A DNA stretch of 60,640 bases from an uncultured Spirochaetaceae bacterium (GTDB lineage Bacteria > Spirochaetota > Spirochaetia > Sphaerochaetales > Sphaerochaetaceae). Made by a program: the position numbers and the translations under genes. Under the pieces are notes generated by a model. It was not told the DNA's origin, ran no database searches, and saw nothing but the letters and a program-made list of their open reading frames with translations. Positions 6,362 to 8,629 of the stretch are shown piece by piece. The stretch spans positions 1 to 60,640 of the forward strand of contig CALXYN010000006.1 in the NCBI GenBank assembly GCA_944392975.1, given 5' to 3'. The stretch's first letter is position 1. Each line of letters opens with the position of its first letter.

Positions 6362-6406
6362 AAAGCGTTATATAATGAATATCAGATAATTATGCAAGAA
6401 AGTGAT

Positions 6407-7895
6407 TAATATTTTCTTAAGTATGTAACATATCTCCCAAACGGAATTACCAGGAAGAGCAGTGGGATTACTGTTTGAGTTATCTAATGTGTAACATATC
6501 TCCCAAACAATCCTGCTGCACAAGGTGCTTCTCTTTCTGTTTGAGTTATCTATTGTGTAACATATCTCCCAAACAAGGCAGCGTAGCATAGAGCCTGGAA
6601 AGATGTTTGAGTTATCTAATGTGTAACATATCTCCCAAACCAACGATGCCGATTTCCAGTCCTTTGTGAAGTTTGAGTTATCTAATGTGTAACATATCTC
6701 CCAAACAACGAGGTAATCCGAATCTTTCTCCTGTCCGTTTGAGTTATCTAATGTGTAACATATCTCCCAAACTGATGACATAGTTCTTCTTGCTATGTGT
6801 AAGTTTGAGTTATCTAATGTGTAACATATCTCCCAAACTATCCTGATAATCAGTATTGCGAACCTATTGTTTGAGTTATCTAATGTGTAACATATCTCCC
6901 AAACCAGAGGATATTGATTCTTCTCATTGGAGATGTTTGAGTTATCTAATGTGTAACATATCTCCCAAACCCACAGGCTAATCCAGCAGGAAAGGCTTCT
7001 GTTTGAGTTATCTAATGTGTAACATATCTCCCAAACAACGGGCCATATTGATATCAAGTACTACAAGTTTGAGTTATCTAATGTGTAACATATCTCCCAA
7101 ACTTCCTCCCCCTCTGCGACAACCCCCTCTCCGTTTGAGTTATCTAATGTGTAACATATCTCCCAAACACAAGGAACATCTTCAATTATTTTTTAAGCGT
7201 TTGAGTTATCTAATGTGTAACATATCTCCCAAACTATGGACAGTTTATAAAAGTTCATTTTGGAGTTTGAGTTATCTAATGTGTAACATATCTCCCAAAC
7301 TAAGGTAGGTGTTTTATGGAATATATTTTTGTTTGAGTTATCTAATGTGTAACATATCTCCCAAACACTCGTAGTGTTGGATTGCGTACTGTCCTTGGTT
7401 TGAGTTATCTAATGTGTAACATATCTCCCAAACTACGGTCAGTTTATCAAAGTCCATTTTGGAGTTTGAGTTATCTAATGTGTAACATATCTCCCAAACC
7501 CTTCTGGTCTCGGTGGTTCTTCTAATCGTGTTTGAGTTATCTAATGTGTAACATATCTCCCAAACTCTAAAGAAGTTGAACCTTCTTCATCGAAAGTTTG
7601 AGTTATCTAATGTGTAACATATCTCCCAAACAAAGCAGCTCTCCCTCGGTTGAGACGATGGGTTTGAGTTATCTAATGTGTAACATATCTCCCAAACCGT
7701 AATGCGTAATTTTATCGCTGGTTTTTTGTTTGAGTTATCTAATGTGTAACATATCTCCCAAACTTCTATTAGCATTGATTCAAAAAGATATGAGTTTGAG
7801 TTATCTAATGTGTAACATATCTCCCAAACACCGCTGAAAACTCTATTTTCAGTCAGAAAGTTTGAGTTATCTAATGTGTAACATATCTCCCAAAC
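6407..7895 (-). CRISPR. Type II-A CRISPR array, 23 repeats and 22 spacers
   Basis: A 36-bp repeat recurs every 66 bp from 6473 to 7895; in crRNA orientation it begins GTTTGGGAGATATGTTAC and ends ATAACTCAAAC. Spacers are 30 bp, except one of 31 bp at 7367-7397. The repeat at 6539-6574 has one substitution, and the csn2-distal repeat (6407-6442) is degenerate in one half. Orientation is set by three facts: the degenerate repeat is distal, the csn2/leader end is proximal, and the repeat pairs with the tracrRNA only in this direction. The spacers at 7235-7264 and 7434-7463 are 26/30 identical. The array guides Cas9 against matching DNA. Confidence 0.97.
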
Positions 7896-7951
7896 CTCTA
7901 CAATAGCAAAGAGAAGGCAAAACAGACATTTTTTCAGTTTTATGTATACAG
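7896..7951 (-). promoter_or_regulatory. CRISPR leader
   Basis: Only 56 bp separate the csn2 stop from the first repeat. On the minus strand this AT-rich stretch contains a TATACA -10-like box at 7943-7948 and ends TATTGTAGAG against the repeat. The pre-crRNA promoter either uses this box or lies inside the 3' end of csn2; read-through from the cas operon is also possible. Confidence 0.5.
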
Positions 7952-8629
7952 TTAAAAAAGCTCGAAACCGTCTAAATCAATTACTATCTTTGTTGCAAAA
8001 TCTATACTGACATCAGATGACAAGGAATTTCCTTCCACAAACAAAAGCGAATGTCCCAACAATTTGCAATCTTTGGCAAGAATGGATAATTCATCTTTTG
8101 AGAAGAATGAAAAAGCGTTAACAATTACAAAGCAACCAATGTTACAGATATTATGCATCATATTCATATACTCAAGTAATTTTTCCAATTCATTCTGGTA
8201 ATCATACTCAACACGATAACCAAGCATTTTCATAATTGCAGCAGATTCTGGTTCAGTATAGGAAACATGATACTGAAAATTTTCTGCAATATATTCTGCA
8301 TACTCTTGCAACGATGCAATCATACTCTGTGTTCTTTCAATCATATCTTCAGAAACTGCAAATGATTTAATCTGAGAGGAAATCTTATTAGTAATACGCT
8401 TATCTTCAATTTCAAAATCCAGAGGATTTGTTATAGATACCAGATTATTCTCAATTTTTAGCTCCTCATTATTCTCCGACAACACAAAGAGACCACCATC
8501 CCCTCTACTCTGCTGTACCAACTCACTTACGTATTTTCTGAAAATTACAGGATTATCAAAGAAAACAACAGTTATCTGTCCTGCCGATAAATCAATTTGT
8601 TTTTCATAATCTGGATGAACAAGTTTCAT
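7952..8629 (-). CDS. csn2: CRISPR-associated protein Csn2
   Basis: This 225-residue protein is the fourth gene of a cas9-cas1-cas2-x operon and has the look of Csn2: MKLVHPDYEKQIDLSAGQ at the start, an ATPase-like fold without a Walker A motif, and long charged helices in the middle. Csn2 forms a tetrameric ring that binds DNA ends and works with Cas1-Cas2 and Cas9 in spacer acquisition. It defines the subtype as II-A. The ATG overlaps the cas2 stop (ATGA at 8629-8626). Identification rests on position plus overall resemblance, since the family is poorly conserved. Confidence 0.85.
   Translation of the reverse strand: MKLVHPDYEKQIDLSAGQITVVFFDNPVIFRKYVSELVQQSRGDGGLFVLSENNEELKIENNLVSITNPLDFEIEDKRITNKISSQIKSFAVSEDMIERTQSMIASLQEYAEYIAENFQYHVSYTEPESAAIMKMLGYRVEYDYQNELEKLLEYMNMMHNICNIGCFVIVNAFSFFSKDELSILAKDCKLLGHSLLFVEGNSLSSDVSIDFATKIVIDLDGFELF

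What the first reader, a model, noticed from the sequence alone, without database searches (positions are those of the whole stretch)
7235..7463. Two spacers differ only at synonymous third codon positions
The spacers at 7235-7264 and 7434-7463 match at 26 of 30 bases. The four differences fall at positions 3, 6, 15 and 21. Read in frame 1 on the plus strand, both encode YGQFIKVHFG with every change synonymous. This indicates that the same protospacer in a protein-coding gene was captured twice from diverged relatives of one mobile element, rather than duplication and drift within the array. It also gives a peptide tag for finding the targeted element.
Basis: partly seen in the sequence, partly recalled or inferred. 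Interest (0 to 1): 0.75.

Follow-up and report, generated by a model that had tools for sequence, protein, structure and literature searches.

The report
Same phage site captured twice
A gut spirochaete's CRISPR memory holds two versions of the same 30-letter piece of virus DNA that differ only by silent letters, best explained as two separate captures from related tiny single-stranded-DNA phages at a conserved spot in their coat-protein gene.

Summary
Only 0.3-3% of random four-substitution pairs keep any open frame unchanged. 22 copies of the 36-nt repeat carry one substitution in total, so duplication plus drift is very unlikely.
The array belongs to an ordinary type II-A system (csn2-cas2-cas1-cas9, predicted tracrRNA) in a Spirochaetaceae genome. 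crRNAs run on the minus strand; 7434 is the younger spacer.
No exact protospacer was found. The decapeptide fits the conserved VP1 coat-protein motif of gokushovirus-like microviruses (R-Y-x-E-[FIL]-[IL]-[KR]-x-H-F): none of 841,253 other six-frame decapeptides scores as high. Other lines also point to microviruses: spacer 7037-7066 matches intergenic hairpins in microvirus records (21/22 nt); spacer 7169-7198 encodes KEHLQLFFK, found exactly in a microvirus replication protein; a same-genus genome carries a microvirus provirus.
Best explanation: independent re-capture of one conserved VP1 site from diverged microviruses; two seed mismatches would probably make the older spacer ineffective against the newer virus. 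It is a clean case of a known kind. Its wider value is support for the doubted microvirus-spirochaete link.

The parts
7235..7264 (-). spacer 13 of 22 counted by + coordinate (10th from the leader; older copy); crRNA sense TCCAAAATGAACTTTTATAAACTGTCCATA
   Evidence: orientation
7434..7463 (-). spacer 16 of 22 (7th from the leader; younger copy); crRNA sense TCCAAAATGGACTTTGATAAACTGACCGTA
6407..7895 (-). CRISPR array: 22 repeats of 36 nt plus a degenerate terminal repeat (6407-6442), 22 spacers of 30-31 nt
7037..7066 (-). spacer 10: matches an intergenic ori-like hairpin of microviruses (21/22 nt; 25/30 in bajarodmic virus 796)
7169..7198 (-). spacer 12: plus frame 3 KEHLQLFFK, motif of microvirus VP4 replication initiator (24/30 nt to MG945457; exact peptide in L100)
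7896..7951 (-). short A+T-rich leader region between csn2 and the array
   Evidence: sequence; inferred from csn2-array order and the degenerate distal repeat
7952..8629 (-). csn2
   Evidence: TIGR01866
8626..8946 (-). cas2
   Evidence: TIGR01573
8936..9808 (-). cas1 (type II)
   Evidence: TIGR03639
9805..13905 (-). cas9 (1366 aa)
   Evidence: TIGR01865
13885..13980 (+). predicted tracrRNA: anti-repeat GTAACATATC..GTCCAAAC and terminator AGCCACCTTAGGGTGGTTTTT
   Evidence: duplex -21.6 kcal/mol with the minus-strand repeat

Best explanation
A type II-A CRISPR array in a gut Spirochaetaceae bacterium captured the same protospacer twice, at different times, from two diverged relatives of one gokushovirus-like microvirus lineage. 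The site codes for the conserved VP1 segment YGQFIKVHFG, just before the D-x-R-L-Q-R-P block of the major capsid protein. Purifying selection holds the peptide while silent positions drift. Shown: array anatomy, synonymous pattern, similarity to the VP1 motif, other spacers with microvirus-like targets, and a microvirus provirus in the genus. Inferred: the PAM side is the 5' end of the plus-strand reading, so the mismatches lie at PAM-proximal positions 3, 6, 15 and 21; two are in the Cas9 seed, so the older spacer would probably not cut the newer virus, and a second capture at the same PAM restored immunity.
For: Exact synonymous pattern. Repeats nearly invariant (Fisher p 1e-4). Decapeptide scores 21.5 bits on a matrix built from 25 VP1 motifs; no other of 841,253 six-frame decapeptides reaches it. 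In the first set of 20 microvirus loci (191,466 positions) spacer 13's single best nucleotide site is the VP1 motif (22/30, MG945231). In seven microviruses selected only by spacer 10, spacers 13 and 16 share the same best site, the VP1 motif of bajarodmic virus 796 (21/30, 20/30). Over 27 loci, 7 of 11 sites with >=19/30 for spacer 16 are the VP1 motif. Spacer 10 finds microvirus intergenic hairpins. Spacer 12 has a VP4 peptide found exactly in L100, whose VP1 reads RYIELILSHFGV. Sister genome G056 has a VP4 spacer (25/30) and its own near-duplicate pair, 30 and 31 nt long, that coincides at the PAM-side end. Microvirus provirus on a host contig in the same genus.
Against: No exact protospacer in IMG/VR, GTDB, INPHARED or family genomes. 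Best nucleotide match is only 22/30, inside the range of null maxima for a single spacer (null maximum 23). Q at position 3 and V at position 7 are not seen in the VP1 motifs collected. A phage thymidylate synthase motif YGQRIRSHFG also fits partly (19.5 against 21.5 bits). PAM not determined. One pair only; the synonymous test is post hoc, and the VP1 motif was recognised before it was tested.
Confidence: 0.77

Rival explanations
1. Two independent captures, but from another conserved phage gene, for example thymidylate synthase (YGQRIRSHFGVDQ) of a tailed phage.
For: Two IMG/VR phages carry YGQRIRSHFGV; its BLOSUM62 score against the decapeptide equals the best VP1 score (39, VP1; the other summed by hand); 19/30 nt to spacer 16.
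Against: R4 and R6 of that motif are F and K in the spacers, as in VP1 of the microviruses found through spacer 10 (YVEF[IL]K). A search with thymidylate synthase flanks found only weak matches, best 47-50% identity. Other spacers of the array point to microviruses.
Confidence: 0.1
2. Duplication of a spacer inside the array followed by point mutation.
For: Exact duplicated spacers occur in related type II-A arrays (L073, L076, L083, L084, L085).
Against: Four changes in the spacer pair against one in 792 repeat bases; all changes synonymous; two different spacers lie between the copies.
Confidence: 0.03
3. The two spacers were captured in different strains and joined by recombination between arrays, so no single lineage was immunised twice.
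For: Arrays exchange by recombination in general (own knowledge); no sister-strain array of this species was available.
Against: No test was possible; ordinary leader-end growth explains the order without it.
Confidence: 0.1

Closest known systems
Type II-A CRISPR-Cas adaptation (csn2-cas1-cas2-cas9)
   Same: Gene content, order, 36-nt repeats, 30-nt spacers, leader-end growth (inferred from the degenerate distal repeat).
   Different: Nothing in the machinery appears new.
Preferential or repeated spacer matching of viral replication and structural genes (Nasko et al. 2019, PMC6401485)
   Same: Targets are a capsid gene, a replication gene and an intergenic hairpin; the same viral gene draws several spacers.
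   Different: Here both captures sit in one array at the identical register, with only silent differences.
Gokushovirus-like Microviridae VP1 (PHROG 514, Pfam PF02305)
   Same: The decapeptide fits the R-Y-x-E-x-x-[KR]-x-H-F-G-V motif position by position.
   Different: Q3 and V7 not seen in the 25 motifs compared; the actual virus is absent from the collections searched.

Membership tests
Type II-A CRISPR-Cas | csn2 beside cas9, cas1 and cas2 | tested here: met
   TIGR01866, TIGR01865, TIGR03639 and TIGR01573 above their cut-offs
Type II-A CRISPR-Cas | tracrRNA with anti-repeat and terminator | tested here: met
   duplex -21.6 kcal/mol on the plus strand upstream of cas9; sequence prediction only
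Type II-A CRISPR-Cas | PAM 3' of the protospacer | tested here: inconclusive
   no exact protospacer; in the G056 pair (30 and 31 nt) the crRNA 3' ends coincide, as expected for a PAM on that side
Protospacer in microvirus VP1 | full-length nucleotide match | tested here: not met
   best 22/30; exact peptide absent from IMG/VR, GTDB and family genomes, no full-length match in INPHARED
Protospacer in microvirus VP1 | peptide fits the conserved motif better than background | tested here: met
   21.5 bits, unique among 841,253 decapeptides
Independent capture of one protospacer | differences follow coding constraint of the source, not array drift | tested here: met

The most novel reading that the evidence does not exclude
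Gut Spirochaetaceae are natural hosts of microviruses, and their type II-A arrays converge again and again on the least mutable sites of these ~5-kb phages (VP1 motif, VP4 motifs, origin-like hairpin), re-capturing the same site when silent drift defeats the older spacer.
Probability: 0.45. Interest if true: 0.6.

Novelty: new member of a known kind. Interest (0 to 1): 0.42.

Why it matters
The pair is a natural record of virus divergence: the host holds two ordered samples of one viral codon stretch, with no amino acid change and silent changes at 4 of 10 codons. It gives a direct test of whether silent drift in a conserved capsid motif is enough to escape Cas9 immunity. It also bears on an open question: Kirchberger et al. 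2022 (PMC9239249) set aside microvirus links to Spirochaetes because each rested on a single contig of a fragmented metagenome assembly. Spacers plus a provirus joined to a chromosomal contig, with an empty site in a sister genome, are stronger evidence.

Tried and rejected
Exact and relaxed degenerate patterns for the decapeptide in IMG/VR, GTDB and 139 family genomes: no target. Spacer-level blastn in phages and of the whole array in plasmids: chance-level hits, except spacer 12 to a microvirus VP4 and later spacer 10. Relatives of the G029 provirus capsid in IMG/VR: none. Window spacers elsewhere in the own genome: nothing beyond short chance matches. Hits to KEHLQLFFK in 14 IMG/VR contigs turned out to lie in another conserved region that is not microviral; only L100 is a microvirus. 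PAM inference from diverged relatives was inconclusive. Cas9 fold prediction was not run because the system's type is not in doubt.

Full report
OBSERVATION. Plus frame 1 is YGQFIKVHFG in both, and it is the only one of six frames open and identical in both. The similarity is far beyond chance (about 1e-9 over all pairs and both orientations); the next best pair in the array matches at 15/30. Random placement of four substitutions keeps some open frame unchanged in 0.3% (starting from the 7235 copy) or 1.4% (from the 7434 copy) of trials, and in 0.8% or 3% with a transition bias. The synonymous pattern is therefore real but, alone, moderate evidence.

SETTING. The array (6407-7895; 22 repeats plus a degenerate end repeat) lies beside csn2, cas2, cas1 and cas9, all on the minus strand. 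A plus-strand anti-repeat followed by a terminator upstream of cas9 pairs with the minus-strand repeat at -21.6 kcal/mol. So crRNAs are read on the minus strand, the leader is at about 7896-7951, and 7434 is younger than 7235 with two spacers between. The PAM should lie just 5' of the plus-strand reading. The closest named relatives of the cas1 gene are uncultured Spirochaetaceae metagenome assemblies.

DUPLICATION OR RE-CAPTURE. If the pair came from a duplication, four changes in 60 spacer bases would have to coexist with one change in 792 repeat bases (Fisher p 1e-4; 0 in the four flanking repeats, p 0.007), and all four would have to be silent in one frame. Independent capture needs neither coincidence. 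In a sister species (G056) another near-duplicate pair (26/30) has lengths 30 and 31 with coinciding crRNA 3' ends, as expected when two captures share a PAM but differ at the distal cut. Among 451 spacers from 25 related type II-A loci, four near-identical but non-identical pairs (the G056 pair among them, as L061) and several exact duplicates occur, so the phenomenon is not unique; the window pair is the one at 26/30 whose differences are all silent.

TARGET. Exact peptide searches failed in IMG/VR, GTDB and the family genomes, and no full-length nucleotide match exists in INPHARED. The decapeptide resembles the VP1 capsid motif of microviruses: RDARGGTR-YGELIRSHFG-VISPDA in IMG/VR contig L039 and R-YTELLLSHFG-V in a provirus of the same genus. 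A position matrix from 17 motifs gave 18.4 bits, and one from 25 motifs gave 21.5 bits; none of 667,906 and 841,253 six-frame decapeptides respectively, other than the two spacers, reached the score (in the second set the runner-up is a thymidylate synthase at 19.5 bits). The motif family was chosen after recognition, so these numbers flatter the claim. Independent lines follow. Spacer 10 (7037-7066), searched against 2.3 Gb of phages, hits microviruses first (21/22 nt), in an intergenic hairpin just upstream of the pilot-protein gene. In those seven genomes both spacer 13 and spacer 16 have their best match at the same VP1 site of bajarodmic virus 796 (21/30 and 20/30), where the capsid reads YVEFLKAHFP. 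Spacer 12 encodes KEHLQLFFK, identical to the replication protein of microvirus L100. In G056, spacer 9 encodes ACGEYGDTL against ACGEYGDTF of a microvirus VP4 (25/30 nt).

HOST LINK. One of 139 family genomes (G029, same genus) has VP1 (PHROG 514, E 4e-115) and a pilot protein at the end of a 136.7-kb contig, 1.6 kb from a chromosomal gene found in 43 of 48 genomes of the genus. The sister genome G062 aligns at 86% up to the junction (position 2314 of L048) and then continues with chromosomal sequence and a sigma-factor gene, without the virus. The junction sequence looks dif-like by eye; that was not tested. Kirchberger et al. 2022 regarded earlier microvirus-Spirochaetes links as doubtful.

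MECHANISM. Counted from the presumed PAM side the mismatches are at 3, 6, 15 and 21. By established Cas9 behaviour (own knowledge) two seed mismatches usually stop cleavage, so the older spacer would probably miss the newer virus. Re-capture at the same PAM then restores immunity. The microvirus genomes fetched here are about 4-6 kb, so usable protospacers are few and repeats of one site are not surprising. That step, the PAM and any selection are inferred.

VERDICT. Observation confirmed, interpretation supported, target assigned at family level but not matched exactly. It is a clean example of a known kind, with added value for the disputed spirochaete-microvirus link.

Noticed in passing
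7037-7066; G056 spacers 15 and 24 (L004, L046): Three spacers in two species lie on or near a conserved microvirus intergenic hairpin (loop ACTTGAT, followed by TGACACC) that resembles a rolling-circle origin; G056 spacer 15 appears to cover the other arm of the same hairpin.
   Followed up: partly
L048:2315-5712 (G029:C3): Microvirus provirus (VP1, pilot protein and a small protein between them) joined to a Spirochaetaceae chromosomal contig; empty site in sister genome G062; dif-like junction by eye.
   Followed up: partly
L046 (G056 spacers 7 and 18): Second near-duplicate spacer pair (26/30), peptide GSGPVSG(D/G)(R/H), two silent and two replacement changes; target unknown.
   Followed up: partly
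L060:12019 and L061:6842: Spacers of two Spirochaetaceae species share 24 of 29 bases and read SMMRNG(I/L)TA; target unknown.
   Followed up: partly
G036 spacer 17 (L047): Resembles the VP4 GEYG motif region (21/30 to L113:3341), so a third species may also target microviruses.
   Followed up: no
6368-7057, 7003-7308: Open frames listed across the array are artefacts of the 66-nt repeat period.
   Followed up: yes
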